A stretch of DNA of 64,000 nucleotides from Intestinimonas butyriciproducens (GTDB lineage: Bacteria; Bacillota; Clostridia; Oscillospirales; Butyricicoccaceae): contig NZ_JACJKW010000013.1 of assembly GCF_016901775.1 (NCBI RefSeq), positions 27,954-91,953 of the forward strand. The letters run 5' to 3'. Both the position numbers and the translations under genes were made by a program. The notes below the pieces were generated by a model. It did not search any database. It was given only the letters and a program-made list of their open reading frames with translations, and was not told the origin of the DNA. Shown piece by piece: positions 2,106 to 64,000 of this stretch (positions are counted from its first letter, which is position 1; the number at the start of each line of letters is the position of its first letter).

Positions 2106-2504
2106 ATGGAAATGAAGTTGTTTTTCCGCAAACACCGGCTAGCGCTTCTGTTCCTCATTCTTTTGCTGCTATTCTTCCTCCTTCTTGTCCCCTGGTATCC
2201 CTTGGAGGATTGGGAAGAAATCTCCATCCAGCAGGTGCTCACCTGGTCACAGTCTGCTGCTATAACGGAAGAAATGGATCTCCAGCACATCCCCCTTTAT
2301 CTGGGAACGCTGCAAATCTGGCCCCTTCCCCTTTCGGCCCCGCCGGAAGAAGGCTTTCTGGTAAAGTTCCTATACGATGAAGAGCCCTGGGAATTGGTGG
2401 TGGGTTCCCACAAGGCCATTCTCCGCCGGATGGGCCACACCCGGGGATTTTCCGTGAAAAACCCTTCTGTCTGGTATGGCATTCTGGAACAGGCCAAGCA
2501 ATAA
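2106..2504 (+). CDS. Small single-pass membrane protein, unknown
   Basis: This 132-residue product has a basic N-terminus (KLFFRKHR) and one long hydrophobic helix of Leu/Ile/Phe at about residues 10-30. An extracytoplasmic domain rich in Trp, Leu and Pro follows, with no motif I recognise. AAAAGGAG lies 7 bp before the ATG and the gene follows the DUF3592-like gene within 15 bp, so the pair looks like a two-gene membrane unit that ends at the terminator at 2509-2546. Confidence 0.6.
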   Translation: MEMKLFFRKHRLALLFLILLLLFFLLLVPWYPLEDWEEISIQQVLTWSQSAAITEEMDLQHIPLYLGTLQIWPLPLSAPPEEGFLVKFLYDEEPWELVVGSHKAILRRMGHTRGFSVKNPSVWYGILEQAKQ

Positions 2505-2508
2505 AAAA

Positions 2509-2546
2509 ACAAGGGGGAAAGCAATGCTTTCCCCCTTGTTTTTTGT
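2509..2546 (+). terminator. Intrinsic terminator, probably bidirectional
   Basis: A perfect 14-bp stem (ACAAGGGGGAAAGC) with an AAT loop is followed by a T-run. An A-run precedes the stem on the plus strand, so it can also stop the converging sulfite-reductase-like gene. Confidence 0.85.
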
Positions 2547-2580
2547 TTATGATGACTGAATGACTGAACGACTATTTTGC

Positions 2581-3516
2581 TTAGCACTTGGCGCCGGCGA
2601 CGGTTTCGATCTCCAGGATCTCTTCCTTCCGCTTAAGCAGATTGTCGGACACCAGCATCTTTTCCACTTTGTCCACGCCCAGGCGCTCCACAGTGTCGCC
2701 GAAACGCTCGCCGGAGATACCCTTCTGCTTGAAGAGCAGGATGGCCTTTTCCACCACCTTGAGCACTTCTTCCCGGGTAAACAGGGTCTGCAGGGGGCTG
2801 CCCATGCGCACCCGCTTGCCCCACTTGCCGCCTACATAGACCTTGTACATGGTCTCGCTCTCTTCGGTGGCGCCGAAGCGGCAGGAGCCCGCGCAGCGGC
2901 CGCAGTTATTGCACAGGCTGGTATCGATGACCGCCCTGCCGTCCTTCATGGAAATGGCGTTCATGGGGCAGGCATCGATCATGGAGCAGGAGGGGCAGCC
3001 TTTGCAGCCTTCGGGGATGATCTTGATGACCTTCTGGCCCACAATGCCCAGATCGTTCAGGTCGGGCTTGACGCAGTTGTTGGGGCAGCCGCCCACAGCG
3101 ATCTTGAACTTATGGGGCAGGATCACATCGTGATAGCCGGTATAGAACTTGTCATGGATCTCCTTGGCCAGGTCCTGGGTATCATACAGACCAAAGACAC
3201 AGGTGGTGCCTTTGCAGCTGACCACAGGACGCACCTTGGAGCCGGTGCCGCCGGTGAGCATTCCGCCCTTTGCCACCGCTTCCTGGAAAGCGGGGATGTT
3301 GTCATAATGAATGCCCGGGCACTCCACAGTCAGCCGGGAGGTAAACTCGATCTTGCCATTGCCGTACTTGGCAGCGGCTTCGCTGAGCACCTGCATCTGC
3401 TGGGCGGTGAGGATGCCGTTTTCGGTGATGATCCGGCCGGAAAATTCCTCGGTGCCCCGGTTGAGCAAAAAGCCCTCTGCTTTGACTCGCTTGATATCGC
3501 TCTGTGTAATAGCCAT
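2581..3516 (-). CDS. Nitrite/sulfite reductase-like sirohaem domain protein with C-terminal 2[4Fe-4S] ferredoxin domain
   Basis: The start at 3516 is chosen over the ATG at 3531 because GGAGGA lies at ideal spacing before it. Residues 1-150 resemble the ferredoxin-like plus sirohaem half of sulfite/nitrite reductases, with SRLTVECPGIH and the cluster cysteines in SCKGTTC and GGCPNNC. Residues of roughly 160-220 form a two-cluster ferredoxin (CKGCPSCSMIDACP and CNNCGRCAGSC). At 311 residues it is about half a canonical sulfite reductase, like the small AsrC/anaerobic sulfite-reductase-type proteins. It probably reduces sulfite or a related sulfur or nitrogen oxyanion in the cytoplasm. The divergent LysR gene and a shared operator tie it to the CoA-disulfide reductase at 4581-6263. 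The first cysteine pair is spaced C-x4-C, not the classic C-x5-C. Confidence 0.75.
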   Translation of the reverse strand: MAITQSDIKRVKAEGFLLNRGTEEFSGRIITENGILTAQQMQVLSEAAAKYGNGKIEFTSRLTVECPGIHYDNIPAFQEAVAKGGMLTGGTGSKVRPVVSCKGTTCVFGLYDTQDLAKEIHDKFYTGYHDVILPHKFKIAVGGCPNNCVKPDLNDLGIVGQKVIKIIPEGCKGCPSCSMIDACPMNAISMKDGRAVIDTSLCNNCGRCAGSCRFGATEESETMYKVYVGGKWGKRVRMGSPLQTLFTREEVLKVVEKAILLFKQKGISGERFGDTVERLGVDKVEKMLVSDNLLKRKEEILEIETVAGAKC

Positions 3517-3592
3517 ATTGTTATCCTCCATCGTCTTTCCATTCTGTTCAGGCTCTTCCTCACACCGAAAAGCCTTTTCTCATCGTGGTTCT

Positions 3593-3621
3593 ATTATACC
3601 CCTTGTCATCCATCAGGTAAA
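3593..3621 (-). promoter_or_regulatory. Sigma-A-type promoter of the sulfite-reductase-like gene
   Basis: Read on the minus strand: -35 TTTACC (3616-3621), 17-bp spacer, -10 TATAAT (3593-3598). The -35 lies within CTATTTTACC, and nearly the same string covers the -35 of the CoA-disulfide reductase promoter, so it may be part of a regulator site. Confidence 0.7.
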
Positions 3622-3643
3622 ATAGTAATATTGAATCAAAACC

Positions 3644-3659
3644 ATAGGCAAAAACCTAT
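3644..3659. promoter_or_regulatory. Putative LysR operator, ATAG-N8-CTAT
   Basis: The dyad ATAGGCAAAAACCTAT lies between the divergent promoters of the sulfite-reductase-like gene and the LysR gene. The same architecture is found at 6363-6378 upstream of the CoA-disulfide reductase. Confidence 0.55.
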
Positions 3660-3685
3660 CACATTGCCAAAAGGGAGCGATTTTT

Positions 3686-4576
3686 GTGACCATCCGTCAT
3701 CTGCGCATTTTCATCGCCGTGGCCGAGACCGGCAAAATGGGCCTGGCCGCCAAACAACTATATATTGCCCAGCCCACTGTCAGCCAGGTCATCGCCGATA
3801 TGGAAAAAAGCTACGGCGTCAAACTCTTTGAGCGGCTGTCCAAAAAACTCTACATCACACCCCAGGGAGAGCGTCTTTTGTCCTATGCCCGGCATATCGT
3901 CAGCCTTTTTGACGAAATGGAGCGCAGCATGCGCAATTCTTCGGCCCAGGTGCTTCTGCGGGTGGGAGCCACCATCACGGTGGGCGCCTGCGTCCTCTCC
4001 CCTATCATCCGCCGGTACGAAGAGCTGTTCCCCCTATCCCAGGTGCAGGTCTTTGTGGACAACACCCGGCTCATTGAAGAAATGCTGCTGGAAAGTCAGC
4101 TGGATGTGGCTCTGGTGGAAGGATCGGTGGAAAGCCCCGATCTGTGCACCCTGCCGGTGATCGAGGACGAGCTGGTGCTGGCCTGCGCCCCCGACCATCC
4201 CTTTGCCTTCCGGGAAACCCTCCATCCGGAGGAACTGGAAGGCCAGAACTTTGTCCTGCGGGAAAAAGGTTCGGGGACACGGGCCTTGTTTGAAGATTAT
4301 CTTCACGCCAGACAAATTGAAGTCTGCCCCAAATGGGTATGCCACAGCGCCGACTCCATCCTCAGCGCCGTGGAAGCAGGCCAGGGACTGACGGTGATCT
4401 CCCGTCTGCTGGCCCAGCCTCGGGCGGCTGAGGGCCGCCTTCGGCTGCTGCGCCTGGCCGACGCCCGGCTGACCCGCTCCTTCCGGCTGGTGTACCACAA
4501 AAACAAATATCTGTCAGAGCCTTTGCGTCACCTGATGGACTGCATGCGTCAGTGTGCCATGACGCCGGAAGATTAG
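3686..4576 (+). CDS. LysR-family transcriptional regulator
   Basis: This is a 296-residue protein with the canonical LysR layout: a winged helix-turn-helix at residues 1-60 (MTIRHLRIFIAVAE, then QPTVSQVIADMEKSYGVKLFER) and a two-lobed effector domain from about residue 90. Translation starts at GTG 3686, supported by AAGGGAG 8 bp upstream and by alignment with the conserved N-terminus. It is divergent from the sulfite-reductase-like gene and tail-to-tail with the CoA-disulfide reductase gene 4 bp away. Matching dyads at both targets suggest it controls them, with a sulfur metabolite as a plausible but unproven effector. Confidence 0.9.
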   Translation: MTIRHLRIFIAVAETGKMGLAAKQLYIAQPTVSQVIADMEKSYGVKLFERLSKKLYITPQGERLLSYARHIVSLFDEMERSMRNSSAQVLLRVGATITVGACVLSPIIRRYEELFPLSQVQVFVDNTRLIEEMLLESQLDVALVEGSVESPDLCTLPVIEDELVLACAPDHPFAFRETLHPEELEGQNFVLREKGSGTRALFEDYLHARQIEVCPKWVCHSADSILSAVEAGQGLTVISRLLAQPRAAEGRLRLLRLADARLTRSFRLVYHKNKYLSEPLRHLMDCMRQCAMTPED

Positions 4577-33630: not shown

Positions 33631-34354
33631 CATTCTTACTCTGTTTCCAGGCATGATCGAAGGGGTTTTGGGAGAGAGCATCATCGGCCGGGGCCGGGAA
33701 TTTGGCCTGATCGATATCAAAGCCCACAACATCCGGGATTACACTCTGGACAAGCACCGGCGCACCGATGACTATCCCTATGGCGGCGGCATGGGAATGG
33801 TGATGCAGTGCGATCCTCTTTACCGGGCCTGGGAAGAGGTGCGGGAGGGCGAAAAGGTACATACCATCCTGATGTCCCCCCAGGGAGCTCCCTTCTGCCA
33901 GGAAAAGGCCAAGGAGCTTTTGGCCCGTGACCGTTTTATTCTGGTTTGCGGCCATTACGAAGGCATCGACCAGCGTTTCATCGACGAATGTGTGGATGAG
34001 GAGATCTCCTTGGGGGATTTTGTTCTCACCGGCGGTGAGATTGCCGCCGTGGCCATTGCCGATGCGGTGTGCCGCATGGTGCCTGGCGTGCTGGCCGATG
34101 ACCAGAGTTTTACCGATGAAAGCCATTTCTCCGGTGTGCTGGAATATCCCCAGTACACCCGGCCGGAAGAATGGCATGGCCGTCGGGTGCCCGATGTGCT
34201 CCTTTCCGGCCATCACAAAAACATTGCTCAGTGGCGCAGGCTCCAGTCTCTTCTCCGCACCCGGGAGCGGCGGCCCGACCTCTTCCAGAAGCTTCAACTG
34301 ACCCGGGAGGACCGGAAGCTGCTGGAACAATGGGAAGAGGAAGAAAATAGCTAA
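33620..34354 (+). CDS. trmD: tRNA (guanine-N1)-methyltransferase TrmD
   Basis: The 244-residue SPOUT methyltransferase makes m1G37 in tRNA. The family motifs DIKAHNIRDYTLDKHRRTDDYPYGGG, CGHYEGIDQRFID and LGDFVLTGGE (knot region) are present. It is translationally coupled to rimM. rplS, which usually follows trmD, is not here; the operon ends at a terminator carrying repeat copy 2. Confidence 0.97.
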   Translation: MKIDILTLFPGMIEGVLGESIIGRGREFGLIDIKAHNIRDYTLDKHRRTDDYPYGGGMGMVMQCDPLYRAWEEVREGEKVHTILMSPQGAPFCQEKAKELLARDRFILVCGHYEGIDQRFIDECVDEEISLGDFVLTGGEIAAVAIADAVCRMVPGVLADDQSFTDESHFSGVLEYPQYTRPEEWHGRRVPDVLLSGHHKNIAQWRRLQSLLRTRERRPDLFQKLQLTREDRKLLEQWEEEENS

Positions 34355-34356
34355 AC

Positions 34357-34380
34357 AAAAAAGCCGGTTTTCACCGGCTT
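34357..34380 (+). terminator. trmD terminator hairpin, left copy of a duplicated pair
   Basis: AAAAAAGCCGG-TTTTCA-CCGGCTT. The intact terminator with T-run is repeated at 34585-34612; repeat copy 2 lies between. Confidence 0.7.
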
Positions 34381-34584: not shown

Positions 34585-34612
34585 AAAAAAGCCGGTTTTC
34601 ACCGGCTTTTTT
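34585..34612. terminator. Terminator hairpin, right copy of a duplicated pair (serves trmD and sigF)
   Basis: AAAAAAGCCGG...CCGGCTTTTTT, A-run before and T-run after, between convergent trmD and sigF. Confidence 0.75.
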
Positions 34613-34614
34613 GT

Positions 34615-35337
34615 TTACCCACCATTTTCCAGGATTTTCTTCACCTTTGCAATGGCCTTTTTTTCGATACGGGAAACCTGTACCTGGGACACCCCCAGGA
34701 TCTGGGCCACCTTCTGCTGGGTCAGATCCCGGAAATACCGCAAAGCAAGCACCGTTTGCTCCCGCTGGGGCAGCAGAGCCATGGCCTCCCGCAGGGCCAG
34801 AAGCTCCACCCGGTCCTCTTCCTCATCGGGAGCCGGGCAAACATCCATCAGCCGAAAGCCATCCTCTCCCCATTCCGCATTGAGGGACAGGGCGCTTTGG
34901 CAGGCTGTCTCTCCGGCGGCGATCTCCTCCGGCGTCAGCCCGGTTTCCTCTGCGATTTCCGAAAGCCGAGGCTCTCTCCCCAGAACACTTTCCAGCCGGG
35001 CCCGGGCCGCCATAACCCGATTCTGGTTCTCCTTCACGCTGCGGCTGACCTTCAAAAGGCCGTCGTCCCGGAGAAACCGACGGATCTCCCCTGCAATTTT
35101 GGGCACAGCGTATGTAGAAAACTGCGTTGCAAAGGCCGGATCAAAGCCCTCCACCGCCTTCAGAAGCCCCATACACCCCAGTTGGTACAAATCGTCTTTT
35201 TCCACTCCCCGCCCCAGAAACCGGCGGACAATGCTCCACACCAATGGGCTGTTTTGGATCACCAGCTGTTCCATGGCCTCTTTGTCTCCCTGTTGGGCCT
35301 TTTGGATCAGCTCACACCGTTCCTCCTGGGCGGTCAA
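34615..35337 (-). CDS. sigF: RNA polymerase sigma factor SigF (forespore)
   Basis: The 240-residue sigma-70 protein has region 2 (QNSPLVWSIVRRFLGRGVEKDDLYQLGCMGLLKAVEGFDP), region 3 (EIRRFLRDDGLLKVSRSVKE, LSEIAEETGLTPEEI) and region 4 (LPQREQTVLALRYFRDLTQQKVAQILGVSQVQVSRIEK). It is the first forespore-specific sigma factor, held inactive by SpoIIAB. It is the third gene of the spoIIA operon and overlaps spoIIAB by 4 bp. Confidence 0.96.
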   Translation of the reverse strand: MTAQEERCELIQKAQQGDKEAMEQLVIQNSPLVWSIVRRFLGRGVEKDDLYQLGCMGLLKAVEGFDPAFATQFSTYAVPKIAGEIRRFLRDDGLLKVSRSVKENQNRVMAARARLESVLGREPRLSEIAEETGLTPEEIAAGETACQSALSLNAEWGEDGFRLMDVCPAPDEEEDRVELLALREAMALLPQREQTVLALRYFRDLTQQKVAQILGVSQVQVSRIEKKAIAKVKKILENGG

Positions 35338-48650: not shown

Positions 48651-51043
<2,393 letters not shown>

Positions 51044-51140
51044 ATTAGCCTCCTTCCCTATCACATTACACCTATATTATACTGCTTTCCACTGGCATCA
51101 TCAAAAAATGGGAAAAGCAACTCAAAGGTAAGCGATAGAA

Positions 51141-53319: not shown

Positions 53320-56300
53320 CTACTTCACCACATTCTCACAGAACCGCATGAGGATGGTGGCAATCTCGGCGCGGGTAGCCTGGCCCTGGGGGGACAGGGT
53401 TGTGTCGCTAGTGCCGGTAATTAGGCCGGTAGCCACGGCCCAGTCCATGGCCTGCTGGGCCCAATCGGAGACCTGGCCGTAGTCAGTGTACTCATGGGCC
53501 ACCATACTGACTTGGCTCACGCTATAGCCTTTGCACTGGGCGTAACGGTAGAGCATAACGGCCATCTGCTCCCGGGTAATGGTGTTATTGGGAGCAAAGG
53601 AGGTGCCGTCTCCCACGCCTTTGACGATACCCTCAGACGCCGCCCAAGTCACCGCGTCGGTATACCAAGTCCCGGCAGGCACATCGGTGAAGCCGGCTGC
53701 TCCGGAGACGGTGGGCTCATCCTCCAGCCGGTAGAGCAGGGCGGCCAGCATGGAGCGTGTAGTGGTCATGCTGGGTGCAAAGGTGGTATAGCTGGTGCCC
53801 TCCATGAGACCGTTTTCATAGGCATAGGCCACCGCATCATAGTACCAGTCGCTCTCCGACACATCGGTGAACGGCAGCGCCTCCACGGCGCTCTCCTCCC
53901 GGAAGACCGCCTGCACGGTGACCGCAGAGGCGGGCATCTCGAAGGTATACTTGCCGTTCTTTTCGGTAAGGGAAATCTTGTCGCCGCTCTTGTCGGTAAC
54001 GGTCAGGGTATCCAGCACATAGCCCTCATCCGCCGAGATGGTCAGAGTGATGCTGTCGCCCTTGGAAGCTGTGGTCTTGCTGGCGGTGACACTGCCGTTG
54101 GCGCTCTTCTGCACCGTGATGGAGTAGGTAGTGACAGAGGACCCGCCGGAACCGCCGGAGGGCGGAGTAGGCGTAGTGTCGGTAATGACCGCTTCCGCCG
54201 TCATAGTGCCGCCACTCAGAGCAGTCAGCAGAGCATCGGTCAGCTCGGTGTAGACCTGGTCGCCGATGCGCCAGCCGTCAAAGCGCTGGTTCTCGGACAC
54301 GGTCACCGTGGGCAGCGCCTTGCCGATATCCTCGGGGGTAAATACTCTCTTCTGTGTTCCCGTCTCACCGAAGTCGAAGGTCACGGAGCCGGTACGGCTG
54401 TCGGACACCACCTCGAAGACGGAGAAGCCGGTGGTCTGGAAGGTGACGGTCTGGCCGGTAATGCTGGGCCGGATGTATTCGATCCGCCCGTCGGACCGCT
54501 CATGCCGGATATAAGTGGTACCGTCAGTCAGAGCAATTCCAGCGGGCACCTGCAGGGTCACCTGCACCGGCACGGTAAGTTGGTCGTTGGTCAGGGTGCC
54601 GGAAGCGATGGGCTCGGCAGAAGGATTAGGCTCCCCGCCTGCCCCTTCCTCGTCCTCCGCGTTGGGGACGATCTGATAGACGGGGGTGATGTCCACCTTG
54701 TAGGACTTGCCGGGTTTGTACTCCTTCACTTCCAGTCGCTGGGAGACCTCTATTTTGACACTGGTGATAGTCTCATCTGCCCCCTCCAGAGCATCCTCGA
54801 CGATTTTCTCCGCGGAGGAGGCGATGGCGGCCAGAATGTTGGTGAACTTGTTTTCCTCGGAGCCGACCGCCGTGTTCATTTGCTCTCTCTGCGTTTCATC
54901 CAAACCGGCAGTCACCTCATCGGCGGGTTCTGCTACCTGGGTCTCACCGACTTCCAGAGACACATTCGTGGGCTGGACCGTAAGGCCGCTGGCATCCACA
55001 CTGTAGCTCACACCACCCAGCTCAACGCTGCTCTCGCCGCCGGCAGATACCTCTGCGGAAGTAGCAGTGGAGCCGCTGGAAAGGGTCGCGGTCACCGTCA
55101 CGGTAATCTTACTCTCTTTATTGCTCATAAAGCCGCTGAGGCGGATGGTGGTGCCGTCCAGATACCAAATGACCTGCTTAGAATCAGTACCGGACAGGCT
55201 GATCTCCGGCATGGAGATGATGAAGGTGCAGGTCTTGTTCTCCGCATTCTCTGCCACCACATAGTTGGGGTTCTTGCTGACTGCGGAGACCACATAGGTC
55301 CCGGCCTCCGTGGCGGCGGGCACACTGAACTCCACGCTGTCGCCTTTCACCAGGCCGCCAACAGCCGCAGCCGTCGGCGCCAGAGGCTGGCCGGTGTAGG
55401 TCAGTTCCGTGTTGCTCCAGGTCAGGGAAGTGATGGAAGCGGGCAGGATGGTGTAGGAAACCGTGTTGTCCGCCGGTACCGTGTAATTGGGGTTGTCGAT
55501 CGCAGCAGAAGCCGTGTGGGTCCCAGCATCCTTGGCATCGCCGCCGGTCACGGTCACATTAGCAATGTCACCCCCCAGCAGGCCCTCCGCGGAAGCGGTG
55601 ACCTGGGAGGCCTGTCCATTATAGGTTCGATCATCAGTACCGGACCAGACCAGAGTGACCTCCTTGGGCTGGACGGTCAGCCGGTACTGGCCGGTGACAT
55701 CGCCCTTCACTGCCGTGATCACGGTGGAGCCCGCGCCCACGATGGTCACCTCGCCGGTGGCTTCATTCACCGTGGCCACAGTGCTGTCCGCACTGCGGTA
55801 GGTGAAGCCCTCCGAGGAATCGCCCAGGCTGGCGGCATTGGTGAACAACTCGTCGCCGTAGGTCTTGGTGACGGTGCCGTTCTCCTGGAAGGAGACGCCG
55901 CCGCCCTGGATATCCGCGGTGACCACATCGGAATTCTTGGTGGAATAGTAATCCTTGCCGTCCACCGTGGCGAAGGGACGGATCATGAACTGATAGGAGC
56001 CCTGGCTCAGTCCCGTGGCGGTGTACTCCGCCTCATCCACGATCCCCAGGCGGGTCCACGCGCCGTTCACCATCTGATAGACGATGTAGTGGGTAGCGCC
56101 CCGGGAGGGCTTCCACTGGAGATGGACGCTGTTGGAGGTGGTGGTGACGGTGAAGTCCTCCGCCGTTACATTGTTGGGCACGATGTCGAAGGTCAGAGTC
56201 GCCACGCCGTAGTAGGGGCCGTCGGAGTAGCCCACGATCCGGACGGTAGCGGTACCCACGTCCACATTATTCTCCCAGTAGGGCATGTAGTCGCCGTAGG

Positions 56301-59300
56301 TGGACTGGCCGAACAGCTCATAGCCGGTCTCAGGGTCGGTGACAGTGACGGCAGGACGCTTGGCCTCGCCGGTGTAGAAGCCGTACAGATAGGCCAGCTC
56401 CATGTCCAGAGTGGCGATATCCTTGCCCTGGAGTCCGCAGGTCTCATAGGTGAAGGTATCCATGTTGAATACCTGACGGGTGCAAACATGGTTCTCGTCG
56501 TAGAGGTGGCCCTGCCGCCGGGTCCCGGACAGCTGATAGAATTCGTTGCAGTCCTTGCACCAGCAGCCCAGATAGCCGTCCTCCCAGCACTGGGCGGAAT
56601 TCACGGTCTCGGAGTTGTGCAGCAGACCGTCTTCCCCGGCGTGGTGGACCGTATCCTCACCCACCGCGAACACGCCGGTCATCAGCTTGCCTGCGTTGAG
56701 ATAGACCGTACCGCTCTTCCCCGCCGGGGTGGTATAGGCCGCATAGCCGGTATAGGCGGCGGAGGAGATACTGTAGCCGCAGGAGCAGGTCAGGCGGGAG
56801 CTGCCGTCCCAGGTGTAGCTGTGGGTGTGGGAGCCATCGCCCTTGGTCTTGGTAAAGGTGTCGATCTTCGACACGCCGCTGCTGGTATAATCGTAAGTGT
56901 CAATGGTCAGGGTGCTGTCCGTGGTGGACAGGGTGAGATAGATGGCGTTGTAGTCGTTGGTAGCCTTGGCGAAGTGGAAGCCCTCCGTGTCGCTGACGGT
57001 GTAGCCCTTGTCACCCAGGCTGCCGCAGATGTAGTAGGTGATGCCCTCGTCGGCGCCCACCACTTCGCCGTCCCTCAGAGGCTCCGTGCGGGCATAGGAG
57101 TGGTCATGGCCGGAGAGGACCACATCGATGCCGGCCTGCTGGCAGGCCTCGGTGAGCGCCTTCTGGGTGCTGCTGTCCATACCGGCTATCACATTGGTGT
57201 AATACGTCGGCTGGTGGGTCACCAGGATCTTCCAGGTAGCACTGGAGGCGGTGGCGTCTTCCACCAACTGATCCAGGTTCTCCTGAGAGAAGCCGCCGAA
57301 AGCAATGGTGGCAATAAATACGTTGCCGGTTTCCATGGTGTAGTAGGTGCTGTCATCCTGGTTGTACATGACCTTGTGGGTATCCACAGAACCGACCTCA
57401 TGGTTGCCCACGGCAAAGAGCCGGGTCATGTCCAGAGACTCCGTCATGCCAAGGGCGCTGTCCCAGTTCCCGTAGGAGGAACCGTCGTCCACCAGATCGC
57501 CGGTCTGGATGGCCAGATCATATTTGCCGAGATCCAGGCTGTTCAGAATACCGGTAATGTTGGTGTTCTCCCGCTCCTGCAGGTCGCCCAGCACCAGGGC
57601 GTTGATACCGGTGTTGGCATAGCCGGTGGTAAAGGACTGGGCCTCGGACCAATGGGTCCCGTCGCCCACCTGATAGTAGTAGGTAGTACCGGGGGTAAGA
57701 CCGGTAACCTCCGCGCCGCAGACATAAGCCGCGCTGCCGTCGGTGAAGGCGACAAGGTCACAGTAGTCGGCATTTTGCGCTTCGGCGCTCTCAAGGCCTG
57801 TCTCACTGTCGGCCAGCCGCAGCTTGGCGGTACTCGCCGCATAGAGGGGATTGGCCAGCCAGCTCACGTTCAGACTGTCGGCGGTATCCGCCGCATTGCG
57901 CCACACATGAGTAGGCGTGCCGTCGGTATTGCCCTGGGGCGTATAGACCACGGCAATGTAGGGGGCTGAGAGGTTGCCCTCGCTGTCCTTTGCGGTGACC
58001 GTAACCGGTCCCTGGCCGGCCTGAGCGGGATAAGCCACCCGGCCGTCCGCATCAGAGGTTCCCAGCAGCATATCGCCCTGGTAGACCCCCACGCCGCTGG
58101 CAGGCAGGCCGGTATCCGAGTGGGTGACCAGGAAATAGCAGGTGTCGGTCAGTCCCGCCACCATCTGACCGCTGGTGACCGTATAGGGGGCGGTAACGGA
58201 CAGAGAGATGGTACTGTTGAAGGTCTCGCTGCCCGCCAGACCGTTCACCCGGCAGGTAAAGCTGCTGCCCGAAGAGGCAGTGCCGGGAATATTCAAGGTC
58301 AGCGTAGCCATGGGACCGCTGTTCACCGTACCGCTCACGGCGAAGGAGAGGGTCCCGGAGGCGGCGTTATAAGAGGCCTCCTGCGTGATCTTGCAGCCCT
58401 CCGGCACCGTCAGCCGGAAGCCCTGGGCATACGCCGCGTCCAGCGTCAGGTCGGCTTCCAGAGTATCCACGGAGTTGTCCCGGGGGGTGAAGGTCAGGGA
58501 GACCGTCTTGCCCAGAACAGCGCTGCCCTCCAGAGCGGCCACTTCCACCGGGGCCTTGCTGCCGTCCGGATCGTTGACGGTGACGGTGAACTCCCGGCTG
58601 GTCTCGTTGCCGTAGCCGTCCACCACGGAGATCCGGATGGTATGATTGCCATTGGCCAGATTGATACCGGCCCGCAGGCTCTCGCTGTCGGTGACCACGC
58701 CGGTGCCCTCGATCTTCCGCCCGTCAATGTACAGAGAGGCGGAGGACACGCCGGTGTTGTTGCGGTCATCCTGGGTGCTGTCGGAGAACAGCGCCTCGAT
58801 GTCCAGTGCACCGGAGGTGAGGGTCATACCGGTGGCGAGATCCACCTGCTCCCCGCTGCCCGCCCTGACTTTGACAGAACTGATCTTCGGGGCGGTGGTG
58901 TCCTCCGGGGTGCTGCCGTAGACATAGGTCAGGTTGTCGAAGTAAAGCGTTCCTCTGAGGTCGCCCTTGGTCAAATTGTTGCCGTTCTTATCAAAGGTGG
59001 CCAGATATTCCGGAATAGGAACCTTGCCGATGGTCACGGTCTCCCCGTTCACCGTAGCGGTTTCGGGAACCACCTCGCCAATGTTCAAGGTTGACCCGTT
59101 GGCCTCCAGATAGCCCCCGCCAAAATTGGTCAGGCGCGAATCGGTCCGGTCCACCAGAATGATATTGCCGTTCTCATCGGTCTGGCACTTGACCCAGCCC
59201 ACAGGAGACGCCCACAGCTTTCCTGCGCCGATGCTCTGCTTGGGGTTGGCCATCATGATACGAATGGACATGTTGGCCGGGATGGTAACCGGTGTTTGCA

Positions 59301-61485
59301 GCTTGCTGATATCGGCCTCAAAGTAATGCCAGTTATCGTCGGCGTTCCGGGCCACATTGTTGGGCATATAGATGGTGTTATCGGTAAAATCCAAATAGGA
59401 GGTGTTGCCGCTGCCGTCGGTGTATTGCAGCCGCAGCCACAGGTTGGGCGTTCCCTTGGGAATATACACCCAAATTCCAATACGGGTGGGATTTCCCATG
59501 TTTGCCAGCTTGATTGCCTCTGTTGCGCCAAAGCACACACCGTCCGTGCTTCCGGTGTTAGTGCTGAAATCATAGTCGATCTTCAACGACTGCTCCCCGA
59601 ATCGAACAGGGTAGTCGTCTGCCTTGGTCACTACCTCAGCTTTCCCAACCTGTCTGCCGTCGGTGGTTCTTCCGGCATAGGAAACACAAGTATAGTCATA
59701 GCCCTCTGCGGTGATCTCCGCAGCTGATTTCGGCGTGTCAAAAGTGGTGTATGTCCCATTTTCATCAAATTTGCCGCCGTAGTCAGTAAGGCTTTGGAAG
59801 ACTTTTGTCCCCTCCCCTTCAAAGTCCATGGCCACCCGGGGATCCTTACAGGCTTCCAGGGTGACGGTACCGGACACGCTGGGATTCGCCTTGCTGGTCA
59901 CCGTCACTCTGGCGGTGATCGCGGAGGCGGTTTTTTCAATATCAGTCAATTCATAATCGGAAGACACATTGGAATTGGTGTTCTCACCATCGTATACCGG
60001 CGCACAGGTCAGTTGGTTGTCCGTGACCGTACCAACGGTAAGCATTTTCATCTGATCGGGACTGCTCTCAGCAGTCTCCACAATGGTCTCATATGTACTG
60101 CCGGACCCGGTCCACTGCTTGCGGCTGTACTGCGTCGGCTCGATGGTCCAGTTAAAATCGCCGTCCTTGTAGTGGACTTCCCGCTGCTTGTAGTAGACCC
60201 GCAGGCCCAGATCGGAGGTATCGCCTTCGCCCATGCTGGCCGTAGTCTCAGCAAAGGTGATCTGGTCGGGATTGGCGATGGTGATGGTGGTGGTACCCAC
60301 CACCTGTCCGCCGCTGTTGAGAGAGACGGTGACATCACCGGTCTTGCCTGTGGAGGTGAACAGGCCGGTGCTGCTGTTGATGGTGCCGTAAGCGGCGTCC
60401 ACTGTCCAGCTCACGTCTTCGGGCAGAGGCGCAGGAGCGCCGGACTTGTCCGCGCCCACGGCGGTGAACTGCACCTGAGAGTTGGGGGTGTACACCTCGT
60501 TGGCAGGGCTCAGGGAGGCGTGGTCAAACACGCCGTCCGACTTCACCCGGGAGAGGATAAAGATGGAGGAGCTCACCTGCCGCTCCTGGCCGTCGGAGGG
60601 ATTGTTGCGGGTGACCACCTGGCTGTCGCCCTCCCGGCGGGAGACGAAGGTGGAGGAACCGCTGCCGTCCAGCAGCAGGGCGGTGACGCAGCCCCGGGCC
60701 TTCATCATCTGGGCCACCTCATACTGGGTGTAGCCGCAGGAGACGGGGTAGCGCTGGCCGTAGCACACCATGGAGACCACGGTGCCGTCCGCCTTGATAC
60801 CGATAGCGGTGTAGGTCACGTTGCGGCCGCCCTGGCCCACGTTGACCTGGCCGTTCTTCACCAGAAGGGTGCCGCCGGCCACCGCGTGCTGCAGATTCGC
60901 CAGATCCTCCTCAGCGGTGCTGTTGGAGATCAGCGCCTTGCCATCCTTGTCGATGGCAAAGTAGTAGCTGCTGCTGGGCTTGTTGTAGGTGACGCCGTCG
61001 ATGATCAGAATGCCGCTGGGCTGGCCGGTGGCCATGTTGTAGTAGTCGGCATTCAGCGCCGCCACGATGGTGGCGTCGGCGTACTCGCTGGAGCGCCGGA
61101 AATAGCTCTGGGTGTCCTTCACCTGATCGGACACCGTCTGCATCCGCCAGCTGATGGTGTTGTCCGTGAGGATGGTCTCCATCCCGGCGTATCCGGCCAT
61201 GATCTCCGCCTGACTCAGATCGATCTCACAGAAGTAGTCCACGTTCTGATTCAGACCGGAGGGCTCGTTGGTGTAGGTCACATACTCCGTGACGCCAGGG
61301 GCCAGGGGATAGGCCGTCTCCGACACGAACTGCCGGTCTTCATTGCTCTCACCCTGGAAGAGGGTCTCGCCTGGCGTCTTGTCCGCAAAGGACGACGCTG
61401 CGGAAACAGTGATCGCCGGACACAGCTGAAGCACCATGATCAGGGTCAGCAGTACCGAAACGATCCGTTTACGACTGTGCCTCAT
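53320..61485 (-). CDS. 2721-residue SLH-anchored enzyme: phosphodiester glycosidase plus metallophosphatase
   Basis: A signal peptide (1-30) leads to an NAGPA-type phosphodiester glycosidase domain (about 60-312; AALNADYYNMATGQPSGIL, LLLDGSGSST, RQVSSSIFI). After Ig-like and carbohydrate-binding-like regions comes a FnIII-like domain and a calcineurin-type metallophosphatase (about 1290-1500) with GDLQERE, GDLVDDG, GNHE and SGHDHSY. Then zinc-ribbon-like and FnIII segments, a BIG2-like domain (about 1860-1930), two MBG-type domains (about 1935-2080), a repeat-type beta domain (about 2450-2530) and three SLH domains (2541-2721) bind it to the cell wall. AGGAGG precedes the ATG. It is downstream of the smaller SLH gene and probably shares its switchable promoter by read-through. 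Confidence 0.88.
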   Translation of the reverse strand: MRHSRKRIVSVLLTLIMVLQLCPAITVSAASSFADKTPGETLFQGESNEDRQFVSETAYPLAPGVTEYVTYTNEPSGLNQNVDYFCEIDLSQAEIMAGYAGMETILTDNTISWRMQTVSDQVKDTQSYFRRSSEYADATIVAALNADYYNMATGQPSGILIIDGVTYNKPSSSYYFAIDKDGKALISNSTAEEDLANLQHAVAGGTLLVKNGQVNVGQGGRNVTYTAIGIKADGTVVSMVCYGQRYPVSCGYTQYEVAQMMKARGCVTALLLDGSGSSTFVSRREGDSQVVTRNNPSDGQERQVSSSIFILSRVKSDGVFDHASLSPANEVYTPNSQVQFTAVGADKSGAPAPLPEDVSWTVDAAYGTINSSTGLFTSTGKTGDVTVSLNSGGQVVGTTTITIANPDQITFAETTASMGEGDTSDLGLRVYYKQREVHYKDGDFNWTIEPTQYSRKQWTGSGSTYETIVETAESSPDQMKMLTVGTVTDNQLTCAPVYDGENTNSNVSSDYELTDIEKTASAITARVTVTSKANPSVSGTVTLEACKDPRVAMDFEGEGTKVFQSLTDYGGKFDENGTYTTFDTPKSAAEITAEGYDYTCVSYAGRTTDGRQVGKAEVVTKADDYPVRFGEQSLKIDYDFSTNTGSTDGVCFGATEAIKLANMGNPTRIGIWVYIPKGTPNLWLRLQYTDGSGNTSYLDFTDNTIYMPNNVARNADDNWHYFEADISKLQTPVTIPANMSIRIMMANPKQSIGAGKLWASPVGWVKCQTDENGNIILVDRTDSRLTNFGGGYLEANGSTLNIGEVVPETATVNGETVTIGKVPIPEYLATFDKNGNNLTKGDLRGTLYFDNLTYVYGSTPEDTTAPKISSVKVRAGSGEQVDLATGMTLTSGALDIEALFSDSTQDDRNNTGVSSASLYIDGRKIEGTGVVTDSESLRAGINLANGNHTIRISVVDGYGNETSREFTVTVNDPDGSKAPVEVAALEGSAVLGKTVSLTFTPRDNSVDTLEADLTLDAAYAQGFRLTVPEGCKITQEASYNAASGTLSFAVSGTVNSGPMATLTLNIPGTASSGSSFTCRVNGLAGSETFNSTISLSVTAPYTVTSGQMVAGLTDTCYFLVTHSDTGLPASGVGVYQGDMLLGTSDADGRVAYPAQAGQGPVTVTAKDSEGNLSAPYIAVVYTPQGNTDGTPTHVWRNAADTADSLNVSWLANPLYAASTAKLRLADSETGLESAEAQNADYCDLVAFTDGSAAYVCGAEVTGLTPGTTYYYQVGDGTHWSEAQSFTTGYANTGINALVLGDLQERENTNITGILNSLDLGKYDLAIQTGDLVDDGSSYGNWDSALGMTESLDMTRLFAVGNHEVGSVDTHKVMYNQDDSTYYTMETGNVFIATIAFGGFSQENLDQLVEDATASSATWKILVTHQPTYYTNVIAGMDSSTQKALTEACQQAGIDVVLSGHDHSYARTEPLRDGEVVGADEGITYYICGSLGDKGYTVSDTEGFHFAKATNDYNAIYLTLSTTDSTLTIDTYDYTSSGVSKIDTFTKTKGDGSHTHSYTWDGSSRLTCSCGYSISSAAYTGYAAYTTPAGKSGTVYLNAGKLMTGVFAVGEDTVHHAGEDGLLHNSETVNSAQCWEDGYLGCWCKDCNEFYQLSGTRRQGHLYDENHVCTRQVFNMDTFTYETCGLQGKDIATLDMELAYLYGFYTGEAKRPAVTVTDPETGYELFGQSTYGDYMPYWENNVDVGTATVRIVGYSDGPYYGVATLTFDIVPNNVTAEDFTVTTTSNSVHLQWKPSRGATHYIVYQMVNGAWTRLGIVDEAEYTATGLSQGSYQFMIRPFATVDGKDYYSTKNSDVVTADIQGGGVSFQENGTVTKTYGDELFTNAASLGDSSEGFTYRSADSTVATVNEATGEVTIVGAGSTVITAVKGDVTGQYRLTVQPKEVTLVWSGTDDRTYNGQASQVTASAEGLLGGDIANVTVTGGDAKDAGTHTASAAIDNPNYTVPADNTVSYTILPASITSLTWSNTELTYTGQPLAPTAAAVGGLVKGDSVEFSVPAATEAGTYVVSAVSKNPNYVVAENAENKTCTFIISMPEISLSGTDSKQVIWYLDGTTIRLSGFMSNKESKITVTVTATLSSGSTATSAEVSAGGESSVELGGVSYSVDASGLTVQPTNVSLEVGETQVAEPADEVTAGLDETQREQMNTAVGSEENKFTNILAAIASSAEKIVEDALEGADETITSVKIEVSQRLEVKEYKPGKSYKVDITPVYQIVPNAEDEEGAGGEPNPSAEPIASGTLTNDQLTVPVQVTLQVPAGIALTDGTTYIRHERSDGRIEYIRPSITGQTVTFQTTGFSVFEVVSDSRTGSVTFDFGETGTQKRVFTPEDIGKALPTVTVSENQRFDGWRIGDQVYTELTDALLTALSGGTMTAEAVITDTTPTPPSGGSGGSSVTTYSITVQKSANGSVTASKTTASKGDSITLTISADEGYVLDTLTVTDKSGDKISLTEKNGKYTFEMPASAVTVQAVFREESAVEALPFTDVSESDWYYDAVAYAYENGLMEGTSYTTFAPSMTTTRSMLAALLYRLEDEPTVSGAAGFTDVPAGTWYTDAVTWAASEGIVKGVGDGTSFAPNNTITREQMAVMLYRYAQCKGYSVSQVSMVAHEYTDYGQVSDWAQQAMDWAVATGLITGTSDTTLSPQGQATRAEIATILMRFCENVVK

Positions 61486-61507: not shown

Positions 61508-61535
61508 CAGGGCGACGGCTTTCGCCGCCGCCCTG
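61508..61535 (-). terminator. Hairpin between the two SLH genes (partial terminator/attenuator)
   Basis: CAGGGCGGCGGC/GCCGTCGCCCTG with a GAAA loop, followed on the minus strand by ATTTTATT. The T-run is short, so read-through into the large SLH gene is plausible. Confidence 0.6.
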
Positions 61536-61559: not shown

Positions 61560-62813
61560 TTAAAGAGTAGGAGCCATGGTATTGGAACCACCAAGAGCTT
61601 CTTCCACATCCTCGGTAGGAACATACTCTTCCTCGTCATCCTCATGGACAAACCATTCACCCAGATCGTGGTCGTAGGAGTACTCCTTACCATCCACGGT
61701 GATAGTCATATCTTCGCCAGCTTCTTCAATGGCATCCATGATGTCACCAATGGAGACATACTCTTTCTCTTCACCGTCACCGATGAAATACTCGCCCTCT
61801 TCTTCATCCCACTGGTAGTGATTGTCACCAACTACAATATTGGGACGCTCGGTGGAGGGAACATCAGGCTTACCGGGCTCGGTGCCGCCGCCGGTGGAGC
61901 CACCGCCGCCGGGCGCGGGCTGCTCCTCAGGAATGACGATCTCTTCGCCGGCCGCGACGGCCTCGCCGTTGACGGTGGTGCCGGCAGCATCATCCGCCAC
62001 GGTGATCACGGTGCCCGCGGGGGCGTTGGTGATGGCCACATCGTCGGCCACCACGCTCACAGTGGCGTCGCCGGTGTAGCCCTTCATGGACACCTTGGCG
62101 CCCTCGGCAGCCACCACCACGGTGGCGTCCGCGTCGCCGGTAATGGTCACATTGTCGGCCAGAACCAGAACAACGCCGCTCTCCTTCAGCTCAACAGTGC
62201 CGTCCTCGACCACATAGTAGGCAATGGTCTGGTCCAGCAGCGCCATCACGCTGGCGCGGTTGATGTTCAGCTCGGGGGAGATGACGCCGTCAGCAGTGCC
62301 TTTCACATAGCCGTTGTTGATGAGAGCGTACACATAGCCCTTGGCCCAGGAAGAAATCTCAGAGGCGTCGGTGAAGTCGCCCTTCAGGCTGCTCTCCTCC
62401 TGAATGCTCAGAGCACGGGCAAACATCACAAAGAACATCTCACGGGTCACAGTGCCGGTGGGATCCATCTGATCGGCTGCAACACCATTCATGATGCCCT
62501 GTGCCACACAGGCGGCAAATGCATCGGCATACCAGGCGTCAGCAGCGACATCAGTATAGGCGCTGAGGTCGGCCTTGCCAGTCAGCTTCAACAGATTAGT
62601 GAATACCTGGGCAGCCTCCGCCCGGGTCATCATGCCCTCTGGGTTGAACTGGCCGTTGGAGCCCTGAACCACACCCGCATCGCTCCAGCGGGCGATGCTC
62701 TCCTCTGCCCAGTGCCCGACGGTATCCGGGTACTCGGCGGCCATCGCCACGGCGGGCAGAAGAGATGTCAGCATGCACAGGCAAGTTGCAATAGCCAATA
62801 GTTTCTTCTTCAT
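61560..62813 (-). CDS. SLH-domain cell-surface protein with acidic C-terminal repeats
   Basis: The start at 62813 follows AGGAG; the signal peptide is residues 1-25 (ATCLCMLTSLLPAVAMA). Three SLH domains follow (about 28-205: YPDTVGHWAEESIARW, YTDVAADAWYADAF, FTDASEISSWAKGYVYA). A beta-rich part (VTITGDADATVVVAAEGAKVSMKG) leads to a Gly/Pro linker (GGGGSTGGGTEPGKP) and two copies of a 35-residue acidic unit with YxWDEEEGEYF and YSYDHDLGEWF. It is first behind the invertible promoter segment and may be an S-layer or adhesion subunit. Confidence 0.88.
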   Translation of the reverse strand: MKKKLLAIATCLCMLTSLLPAVAMAAEYPDTVGHWAEESIARWSDAGVVQGSNGQFNPEGMMTRAEAAQVFTNLLKLTGKADLSAYTDVAADAWYADAFAACVAQGIMNGVAADQMDPTGTVTREMFFVMFARALSIQEESSLKGDFTDASEISSWAKGYVYALINNGYVKGTADGVISPELNINRASVMALLDQTIAYYVVEDGTVELKESGVVLVLADNVTITGDADATVVVAAEGAKVSMKGYTGDATVSVVADDVAITNAPAGTVITVADDAAGTTVNGEAVAAGEEIVIPEEQPAPGGGGSTGGGTEPGKPDVPSTERPNIVVGDNHYQWDEEEGEYFIGDGEEKEYVSIGDIMDAIEEAGEDMTITVDGKEYSYDHDLGEWFVHEDDEEEYVPTEDVEEALGGSNTMAPTL

Positions 62814-62887
62814 GTTTTTACTCACTCCTATTATGTTGATTTCTTGTTGCGCTGTTTATCGGTGCACAGTGCGGAGCCGGAGCATTA

Positions 62888-62895
62888 CCCCCCCC
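62888..62895. repeat. Eight-C homopolymer in the SLH gene leader
   Basis: A run of eight C (G on the transcript) followed by five T lies between the inverted repeat and the SLH start codon. Such tracts can vary by slippage. Confidence 0.5.
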
Positions 62896-62902
62896 TTTTT
62901 GT

Positions 62903-63207
62903 AGACAAAATTGATATTCTGACGCACAGGCCAGTCGATGGAAATAAAGATTTCCATTTCCTGTTCTTCATTTTAGCACACTTCGCTTTAAAAGGCAATT
63001 ATAATTTTGAAATAACAACTATAATTTCCATACCAGGCATAATAGATTAGCCCGTCAGTGCGAGAGATGTACCGACGGCCACTTTTTTTGCGCACAAAAC
63101 CACAATTTTGTGGCCCCTCAAGCCGACATGTCGGCCTGAATGCTGGCCCGCAGACAAATTAGAAGTAAGCTGTGGAGCGGATGTGCGTCAGAATATCAAT
63201 TTTGTCT
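62903..63207. other. Candidate invertible DNA segment bounded by perfect 26-bp inverted repeats
   Basis: The left repeat is 62903-62928 (begins AGACAAAATT) and the right repeat 63182-63207 is its exact reverse complement (ends AATTTTGTCT). The 253-bp interior holds a good promoter pointing to the SLH gene, the palindromes GCCGACATGTCGGC and CCACAATTTTGTGG, and no gene. The right repeat is 2 bp from the stop of a tyrosine-recombinase coding sequence. This matches promoter-inversion switches; a 305-bp MITE is the alternative. Confidence 0.75.
62970..62998 (-). promoter_or_regulatory. Promoter inside the invertible segment, reading into the SLH gene
   Basis: On the minus strand: TTGCCT (plus 62993-62998), 17-bp spacer, TAAAAT (62970-62975). 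Transcription would cross the left inverted repeat and enter the SLH gene 150 bp on, so the sequenced orientation looks ON. Confidence 0.7.
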
Positions 63208-63209
63208 CC

Positions 63210-64000
63210 TTATGATATGAGACGCAGTTGCTCCAGCACTTTGGCGTGCTCCGCTCCCGTGGAAAGAAGATAGATGCGAGTGGTCCCGATGGAAGAATGG
63301 CCCAGCACATCGGCCAGCTTTACCACATCCCGGCATGCCTGGTAAAACGTCCGGGCGAGCAGATGCCGCAGGTTGTGAGGGAATACCTTGGCAGGTGCCA
63401 CTCCCGCCCGCTGGCACAGCCCTTTCATCTCTCTCCATATCTGTTTTCCGGAGAGAGATGTCCCGCTTCTGGTGAGAAAGATCTCGCCGGAGGCGATTTT
63501 ATTTTTTCTGGCATATTTCAGAAGCTTGCGGCAAAGCTTGCCCGGCAAGAGGATGGCGCGGATCTTGCCCCTGAGCGCTACCTCTACCTTCCCGCACCGG
63601 GCGGCATCCACGGTGGGGTATCGCACCTCGCTGACCCGGATGCCAGTGCTACAGATGCTCTCCATCAGCTTGCCGTTTGCCTTGCGGCGCAAGTAGTTCT
63701 GGTGAAGCCTGTCCTTGCGTTCCTCTTTCTTCCGCAGTTCTTCCTGTTCCTCCGGGGTCAGGGGAACCGGCTGCAAGGCGGGCGGGATATACCGGCCCAC
63801 AAAATCGAAGTAGATTTCAACCTCCTGCGTGGTGTCCTGGCTGTCTTTGCGGGCGCGTTCATGGACAAGGATTTTCTCTACAAACTCGTTAAGCATGGTG
63901 TTTGTCAGCGTGTCGAAGTTCTCGTACTTATCAATCAGGGCAATAAACTTCTCCGCAGATTTCCGGCTCTGCTCATAGCCGGTAACGGCCTTTTCCAGTT
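63210..64000 (-). CDS. Chimeric recombinase: serine recombinase C-terminus fused in frame to tyrosine recombinase catalytic domain (5' end beyond window)
   Basis: From the window edge to about 63680 the frame encodes the C-terminal DUF4368-type part of a large serine recombinase (LIDKYENFDTLTN, VEKILVHERARKDSQDTTQEVEIYFDFVG, LHQNYLRRKANGK). It then continues without a stop into a tyrosine recombinase: catalytic Arg in CSTGIRVSEVR, HNLRH, LGHSSIGTTRIYL with the nucleophile Tyr. The tyrosine recombinase lacks its N-terminal core-binding domain here. The simplest reading is that a second integrative element, lying to the right, inserted into the tyrosine recombinase gene. The stop codon is 2 bp from the inverted repeat at 63182-63207. 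Confidence 0.8.
   Translation of the reverse strand, partial: LEKAVTGYEQSRKSAEKFIALIDKYENFDTLTNTMLNEFVEKILVHERARKDSQDTTQEVEIYFDFVGRYIPPALQPVPLTPEEQEELRKKEERKDRLHQNYLRRKANGKLMESICSTGIRVSEVRYPTVDAARCGKVEVALRGKIRAILLPGKLCRKLLKYARKNKIASGEIFLTRSGTSLSGKQIWREMKGLCQRAGVAPAKVFPHNLRHLLARTFYQACRDVVKLADVLGHSSIGTTRIYLLSTGAEHAKVLEQLRLIS

What the first reader, a model, noticed from the sequence alone, without database searches (positions are those of the whole stretch)
62814..63209. Phase-variable promoter switch for SLH surface proteins
Seen: perfect 26-bp inverted repeats (62903-62928 and 63182-63207) enclose 253 bp with a 17-bp-spaced promoter (TTGCCT/TAAAAT) directed at the SLH gene, and a tyrosine-recombinase coding sequence ends 2 bp beyond the right repeat. 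Known: C. difficile cwpV is switched by RecV-mediated inversion of a short promoter segment between inverted repeats, with one repeat ending in the 5' leader. Inferred: inversion here would turn the 417-residue SLH protein, and by read-through the 2721-residue SLH enzyme, ON or OFF. The sequenced state appears ON.
Basis: partly seen in the sequence, partly recalled or inferred. Interest (0 to 1): 0.93.

Follow-up and report, generated by a model that had tools for sequence, protein, structure and literature searches.

The report
Promoter flip-switch with truncated recombinase
Perfect 26-letter mirror-image repeats flank a 253-letter DNA segment with a predicted promoter that would, by flipping, turn a predicted bacterial surface-protein gene on or off; the recombinase gene beside it lacks its front part, so here the switch is likely stuck ON or flipped by a second recombinase elsewhere in the genome.

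Summary
Relatives of the neighbouring recombinase carry an inverted-repeat pair just after their stop codon in 72 of 100 loci (window included), against 1 of 1938 control positions and 0 of 13 unrelated tyrosine recombinases. Sites have the form GACAAAAT-N4-ATTTTGTC; the N4 centre is identical within 70 of 70 pairs but agrees in only 4% between loci. Two related MAGs have collinear flanks around an inverted 464-bp middle. Predicted promoters face the downstream gene in 18 and the recombinase in 54 of 78 loci. The window is thus a likely promoter-inversion switch, caught in the predicted ON state. Corrections: the local recombinase is truncated and fused to a serine-recombinase tail; a strong hairpin precedes the 2721-residue gene; the cwpV promoter lies outside its inverted segment. 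Clostridial invertons linked to tyrosine recombinases are published, so this is a new member of a known kind. Flipping in this strain could not be tested.

The parts
62903..62928 (.). Left arm of the inverted repeat: A-GACAAAAT-TGAT-ATTCTGAC-GCACA; would lie in the 5' leader of the SLH transcript
63182..63207 (.). Right arm, perfect reverse complement of the left arm, 2 bp from the recombinase stop codon
62929..63181 (.). 253-bp segment predicted to invert
   Evidence: family comparison
62970..62998 (-). Predicted promoter TTGCCT-17-TAAAAT with extended -10 TG, pointing at the SLH gene (predicted ON)
61560..62813 (-). SLH-domain protein, 417 aa, the predicted target of the switch
61508..61535 (-). 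Terminator-like hairpin, 12 pairs, followed by ATTTTATT, between the two SLH genes
   Evidence: -28.7 kcal/mol for the stretch, z -5.45
53320..61485 (-). SLH enzyme, 2721 aa (NAGPA, Metallophos, SLH); possible second target by attenuated read-through
63210..63667 (-). C-terminal catalytic part of a tyrosine recombinase, equal to residues 130-281 of the intact relative P0006
63668..64000 (-). Tail of a large serine recombinase (DUF4368) fused in frame to the tyrosine recombinase; runs off the contig end

Best explanation
The 305-bp unit 62903-63207 is likely an invertible promoter: a tyrosine recombinase would exchange strands at the two GACAAAAT-TGAT-ATTCTGAC sites and flip the segment, so that its predicted promoter points at the SLH gene (predicted ON, as sequenced) or at the recombinase's 3' end (predicted OFF). 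Shown by the calls: perfect arms with identical site centres; arms of the same kind beside the recombinase in 72 of 100 related loci; one pair of related genomes with the segment inverted between collinear flanks; and a recombinase beside the window's switch that lacks the N-terminal domain found in 107 of 111 relatives. Inferred: promoter activity, inversion at this very locus, and the effect on the SLH protein. Because the local recombinase is truncated and fused to a serine-recombinase tail, I take present-day flipping in this strain to need the full-length paralogue on contig C16 acting in trans; if that does not happen the switch is locked ON.
For: Perfect, unique arms. IR pair of 14 bp or more after the recombinase stop in 72 of 100 loci with room, against 1 of 1938 random positions and 0 of 13 unrelated tyrosine recombinases; 10 of 15 further loci. 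Site form and N4 centre: 70 of 70 pairs equal within a locus, 194 of 4830 between loci. L172/L184: 923 bp (84%) and 1460 bp (91%) collinear, 464 bp between them inverted at 88.6%. Promoters in both directions, ON 18, OFF 54, undecided 6 of 78; scores above shuffles, median 13.0 against 7.8. Published flipping of recombinase-linked clostridial invertons of similar size (PMC11892184). Paralogue C16 is full length with half-sites of the same type.
Against: No read data, so no second orientation has been seen at this locus. The promoter match alone is not above chance in the simple scan. The local recombinase is truncated. No relative of the 253-bp segment itself was found in 87 genomes of the family or in the 99 genomes, so orientation could not be compared for this locus. 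Of the eight related, non-duplicate pairs with a matching segment, six have it in the same orientation and two inverted. 28 of 100 loci lack a perfect pair of 14 bp. Action of the C16 enzyme in trans is inference, and its site centre differs (CCCC against TGAT).
Confidence: 0.8

Rival explanations
1. A fossil switch locked ON: loss of the recombinase's N-terminal part, through a serine-recombinase remnant, fixed the promoter toward the SLH gene and no enzyme flips it now.
For: Recombinase lacks residues 1-129 of 281, while 107 of 111 relatives have the N-terminal domain; predicted ON is the minority state in the family (18 of 78).
Against: Arms are still perfect over 26 bp and the centres identical; a full-length paralogue with similar half-sites exists in the same genome. 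ON also occurs beside intact recombinases, so ON is no sign of locking.
Confidence: 0.4
2. The local chimeric recombinase is itself active and flips its own switch without the usual N-terminal domain.
For: In-frame fusion without stops; the Arg, Lys, HxxR, His and Tyr positions conserved in the family are kept (their catalytic role is recalled knowledge).
Against: The whole N-terminal domain and the start of the catalytic domain are missing; the 120 best of 8000 scored relatives include no such fusion; its start lies beyond the contig end.
Confidence: 0.07
3. A cwpV-type switch: inversion acts through a terminator or RNA structure in the leader, with a promoter outside the segment.
For: The segment folds as RNA better than its shuffles (-79.2 against -63.6 kcal/mol, z -3.30).
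Against: The terminator scan found none in 62780-63260; the only promoter-like site outside the segment on the SLH strand there (62858-62830) ends 17 bp before the start codon. In the family the promoter lies inside the segment, 28-63 bp from the arm it faces in 64 of 72 decided loci.
Confidence: 0.04
4. The 305-bp unit is a MITE or other small transposable element that happens to lie here.
For: Terminal inverted repeats around a short non-coding piece.
Against: The arms occur once as a pair in the genome and the unit has no other copy in it or in the genomes; the 8 bases next to the two arms are not duplicates.
Confidence: 0.01

Closest known systems
Clostridial inverton group 139 linked to invertase group 35 (PMC11892184; section 8 and passages read)
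   Same: Short segments between inverted repeats in Clostridia with a nearby tyrosine-type recombinase gene; quoted examples have 14-bp repeats 227 bp apart (Intestinimonas butyriciproducens) and 26-bp repeats 205 bp apart (Clostridium sp. D5), and reads in both orientations.
   Different: The window's recombinase is truncated.
E. coli fim switch (FimB/FimE), as described in PMC2784873 passages
   Same: Promoter inside the inverted segment; tyrosine recombinase gene close by.
   Different: The window's recombinase matches NCBIfam tyrosine-type DNA invertase models only far below their cut-offs (32.2 and 23.5 bits against 222 and 221); intact relatives are XerC/XerD-like with an N-terminal SAM-like domain.
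C. difficile cwpV switch with RecV (PMC2784873; abstract and passages read)
   Same: Inversion between short repeats (21 bp, 195 bp apart) upstream of a surface-protein gene in a clostridium.
   Different: cwpV promoter lies outside the inverted segment, with a terminator model; recV is not located near cwpV. Here a predicted promoter is inside and a recombinase remnant is adjacent.
C. difficile Cdi7 (PMC5903667; passages read)
   Same: An invertible site with a recombinase gene in its vicinity, whose inversion did not depend on RecV.
   Different: Sequences not compared here.

Membership tests
Recombinase-linked GACAAAAT-N4-ATTTTGTC switches (family defined here) | Inverted-repeat pair a few bases after the recombinase stop, about 200-300 bp apart | tested here: met
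   d1 = 2 bp, spacer 253, 26-bp arms
Recombinase-linked GACAAAAT-N4-ATTTTGTC switches (family defined here) | Site core of the family form with identical N4 centre in both arms | tested here: met
   GACAAAAT-TGAT-ATTCTGAC twice; outer half perfect, inner half 6 of 8 to consensus
Recombinase-linked GACAAAAT-N4-ATTTTGTC switches (family defined here) | Full-length tyrosine recombinase with N-terminal SAM-like domain beside the switch | tested here: not met
   Catalytic part only, fused to DUF4368
Recombinase-linked GACAAAAT-N4-ATTTTGTC switches (family defined here) | Predicted promoter inside the segment | tested here: met
   Score 13.9 toward the SLH gene, 6.1 toward the recombinase
Inverton group 139 / invertase group 35 (PMC11892184) | Repeat motif of the group | not testable with these tools
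Inverton group 139 / invertase group 35 (PMC11892184) | Reads in both orientations | not testable with these tools
   No reads available
fim-type tyrosine DNA invertases | Match to the curated invertase models above cut-off | tested here: not met
   PRK09871 32.2 of 222 bits, PRK09870 23.5 of 221
cwpV-type switch | Promoter outside the inverted segment, terminator in the OFF leader | tested here: not met
   Best promoter match lies inside; no terminator found by the scan in the sequenced orientation; the inverted orientation was not scanned
MITE | Several scattered copies with target duplications | tested here: not met
   One copy; bases next to the arms differ

The most novel reading that the evidence does not exclude
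The window shows an orphaned switch inside a self-addressed switch system: recombinases of this family recognise a common half-site, while the private 4-bp centre of each pair decides which two sites recombine. One intact paralogue (contig C16, centre CCCC) drives the window's switch (centre TGAT) in trans after its own recombinase was broken by a serine-recombinase remnant, so several surface and regulatory genes flip independently under one enzyme pool.
Probability: 0.3. Interest if true: 0.65.

Novelty: new member of a known kind. Interest (0 to 1): 0.48.

Why it matters
If it works as predicted, it ties a pair of surface-layer genes (an SLH protein and a very large SLH enzyme) to an ON/OFF switch, while one genome of another genus has the pair without the switch. 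The family around it is found in many Oscillospiraceae and Lachnospiraceae records, has a readable site code, and its predicted state can be typed from assemblies alone. The truncated local recombinase makes a natural test of whether such switches are run in trans by paralogues.

Tried and rejected
Rejected: MITE; cwpV-type terminator switch; the idea that the window's recombinase is an ordinary intact enzyme; free operon read-through to the 2721-residue gene. The inverted repeat at 34352/34601 has switch-like spacing but consists of two copies of a terminator-like hairpin with no promoter match, so spacing alone is not evidence.

Led nowhere: no repeat pair of this type in L102-L104, which hold the SLH homologues of three other genomes; no viral contig holds the exact 21-base site; the plasmid collection gave one distant recombinase only. 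The spacer lengths of the two quoted group-139 invertons (227 and 205 bp) match none of the pairs listed, so identity with that group stays untested. Within-genome centres differ in 13 of 13 pairs, but only about 0.5 equal pairs would be expected by chance, so an address code is not shown.

Dropped rows and limits: one search took in 116 loci; 115 gave a match, 4 of these had no stop before the contig end, and 11 of the other 111 had under 330 bp after the stop, which leaves 100. L073/L195 and L075/L204 are the same loci held twice and both are in the 100; L195 is also in the 78 and was dropped (77). Scored without the arms, one search gives 16 ON and 56 OFF. One search scanned 59 of the 61 downstream frames picked (I left out L066 and L093, short and open); 3 loci without a forward frame and 13 flagged as reverse, of 77, were not scanned. 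One search used 94 loci at 60% identity or more with room; 70 passed the core threshold. In one search equal centres follow partly from how the arms were found; one search is the independent test. Loci are related to each other, so all family counts are of loci, not of independent events. The promoter weights used are approximate and recalled. One search stopped with a script error after two of four comparisons; the other two were not repeated. In L156/L166 the recombinase side is collinear (879 bp) but downstream there are only short matches, so it is weaker than L172/L184. L172 itself is undecided in the promoter scoring (12.7 against 11.0), L184 is OFF.

Full report
Observation. The 26-bp arms at 62903-62928 and 63182-63207 are perfect inverted repeats 253 bp apart and occur nowhere else in the 2.58-Mb genome at up to 3 mismatches. 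Inside, on the minus strand, TTGCCT-17-TAAAAT with an extended -10 TG points at the 417-residue SLH gene. The recombinase stop lies 2 bp outside the right arm. The promoter match alone is weak evidence: the scan finds 2 sites in the region where shuffles give 1.0 on average.

The recombinase is not what it seemed. The frame 63210-63998 joins DUF4368, the C-terminal end of a large serine recombinase, to the catalytic part of a tyrosine recombinase. Full-length relatives fetched here are mostly about 280-300 residues (open frames), and metagenome relatives of 281 residues carry an N-terminal SAM-like domain. The window's copy begins at the residue equal to 130 of 281 in P0006. The N-terminal domain was found in 107 of 111 related loci; the exceptions are the window, L141 and L142 (cut by contig ends) and L179. 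At the junction the DNA follows another copy of the serine recombinase in the same genome (C7 start, 328 of 340 bases) up to GGCAAGC and then leaves it. The window's end and the C7 start both overlap the C7 end and the C25 end by 108 bp, which reads as an assembly-graph overlap, so what lies beyond the window is one of two contigs. The serine-recombinase part of the window has its own differences from C7, so it looks like a real second copy. A search of the assembly with the full-length paralogue found no closely similar orphan N-terminal piece.

The family. Of 100 loci with room, 72 (window included) have a perfect inverted-repeat pair of 14 bp or more that starts within about 130 bp of the recombinase stop, against 1 of 1938 random positions in the same loci. 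Of 13 unrelated tyrosine recombinases with room, none has one. Of 15 further loci, 10 have one. The sites have the form GACAAAAT-N4-ATTTTGTC. When the two cores were searched for independently, 70 of 94 loci had both, and in 70 of 70 the N4 centre was identical in inverted register, while centres of different loci agree in 194 of 4830 comparisons. Tyrosine recombinases need matching sequence between the two sites at the point of exchange (recalled knowledge), so this is what sites kept in use by recombination would look like.

Inversion in the family. L172 and L184, two MAGs labelled Acetatifactor in a collection that holds one genome per species, are collinear over the recombinase (923 bp, 84%) and over the downstream gene (1460 bp, 91%), while 464 bp between them are inverted at 88.6%. 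L156 and L166, two loci of one MAG, have 182 bp inverted at 81%, with the recombinase side collinear but only short matches downstream. Among the pairs with recombinase genes at least 82% identical over 400 bp or more, and leaving out loci held twice and the contig-end loci of G042, eight have a matching segment: two inverted (L172/L184, L135/L136) and six in the same orientation (L141/L142, L142/L158, L153/L157, L160/L161, L174/L176, L187/L198); L135 has no perfect pair. Promoter scoring puts 18 loci toward the downstream gene, 54 toward the recombinase and 6 undecided, of 78. Scores exceed those of shuffled segments (median 13.0 against 7.8; 63 of 77 against 55 of 616 at 11 or more), and the -10 ends 28-63 bp from the arm it faces in 64 of 72 decided loci, 12 of 16 ON and 52 of 56 OFF. 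Most assemblies are thus in the predicted OFF state; the window is predicted ON.

Targets. Among 59 downstream frames scanned, the commonest Pfam matches are Phage_int_SAM_1 (8), Phage_integrase (6), DUF4379 (4) and Beta_helix_3 (4); SLH has 2, the window included (the first 25 of 63 families shown). Several frames begin with a signal-peptide-like stretch (by eye). The switch is a general module, not an SLH-specific one.

The window's target. In G016, of another genus in the same family, an SLH gene (58% identical over residues 3-327) is followed by a NAGPA protein 45% identical over its first 766 aligned positions to the 2721-residue protein. No repeat pair of this type was found in that locus, and that genome has no close match to the recombinase. 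So the gene pair also occurs without the switch; which state is older is not known. Between the two genes both genomes have a terminator-like hairpin and no promoter match. I read this as attenuation, an abundant first protein and a scarcer second one, if read-through occurs at all.

Can it still flip? The genome's only other close family member, on C16, is full length (open frame of 289 residues, 74% identical in the catalytic part) and has its own site pair with half-sites GACAGAAT and GACAAAAT or AACAGAAT and centre CCCC. The only exact matches to ACARAAT-N4-ATTYTG in the genome are the two window sites and the two C16 sites. The C16 enzyme could act on the window's sites in trans; this is inference. 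If it does not, the switch is locked ON. Perfect arms fit either recent loss of the local enzyme or continued use. Relatives of 281 residues, 88-95% identical over the shared part, exist in metagenomes, and three contig-length coincidences suggest that some sit beside an SLH homologue.

Known systems. PMC11892184 (section 8 and passages) describes inverton group 139, 32 of 33 from Clostridia, linked to tyrosine-type recombinase group 35, with shifting orientation in reads of Clostridium sp. D5 and Intestinimonas butyriciproducens. Size and setting agree with the present family; the motif was not available to me. PMC5903667 (passages) reports a C. difficile site, Cdi7, with a recombinase nearby. 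Eight literature searches were read as listings with abstract openings; I saw none there about an SLH gene under an invertible promoter in Oscillospiraceae. Two of them found nothing, and most subscription papers are not held.

Verdict. A well-supported member of a known kind of promoter switch, with a truncated local recombinase as its unusual feature. Flipping at this locus is untested.

Noticed in passing
L131 (G000:C7:79000-82208), 2262-3024: A CRISPR-like array of 12 copies of a 36-38-nt repeat at 65-67-nt spacing, with cas1/cas2-like frames upstream by eye, directly before the serine-recombinase piece that may continue into the window's chimeric recombinase.
   Followed up: partly
L130 (G000:C25:12000-15889), 2408-3889: Frame in which the middle and end of the same serine recombinase follow an unrelated-looking N-terminal part (by eye), so this recombinase appears in more than one fusion in this genome.
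   Followed up: no
G042: L088, L090, L091, L093, L096-L098, L101: This genome has 11 listed matches to the recombinase, many at contig ends, three of them 58-84 bp after the stop; mixed orientations or repeats may have broken the assembly there.
   Followed up: no
L138, L141, L146, L147, L149, L168, L187, L193, L196, L198: Beyond the switch lies another integrase-like frame instead of a surface gene (assigned by eye), so some switches may regulate a second recombinase.
   Followed up: partly
L065 (G000:C16:34000-41000), sites about 2847-3148: Second switch of the same genome, predicted ON, before a DUF4379 zinc-finger protein, beside the full-length paralogous recombinase.
   Followed up: partly
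window 34352-34368 and 34601-34617: 17-bp inverted repeat with switch-like spacing that consists of two copies of a terminator-like hairpin, no promoter match.
   Followed up: yes
window 48672-51064: A collagen-like Gly-X-Thr repeat frame overlapped at its 3' end by a serine recombinase on the other strand.
   Followed up: no
proteins P0004 and P0045: Two 151-residue metagenome proteins of different alleles that begin at exactly the methionine next to the window's fusion point; a shared break point or a start-codon choice.
   Followed up: no
window 62929-63181, minus strand: The segment folds as RNA better than its shuffles (z -3.30) although no terminator was found; meaning unknown.
   Followed up: no
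Pusillibacter faecalis record NZ_AP023421.1, 430999-431424: A relative of the recombinase (69.9% DNA identity) on a 504-kb plasmid record predicted conjugative.
   Followed up: no
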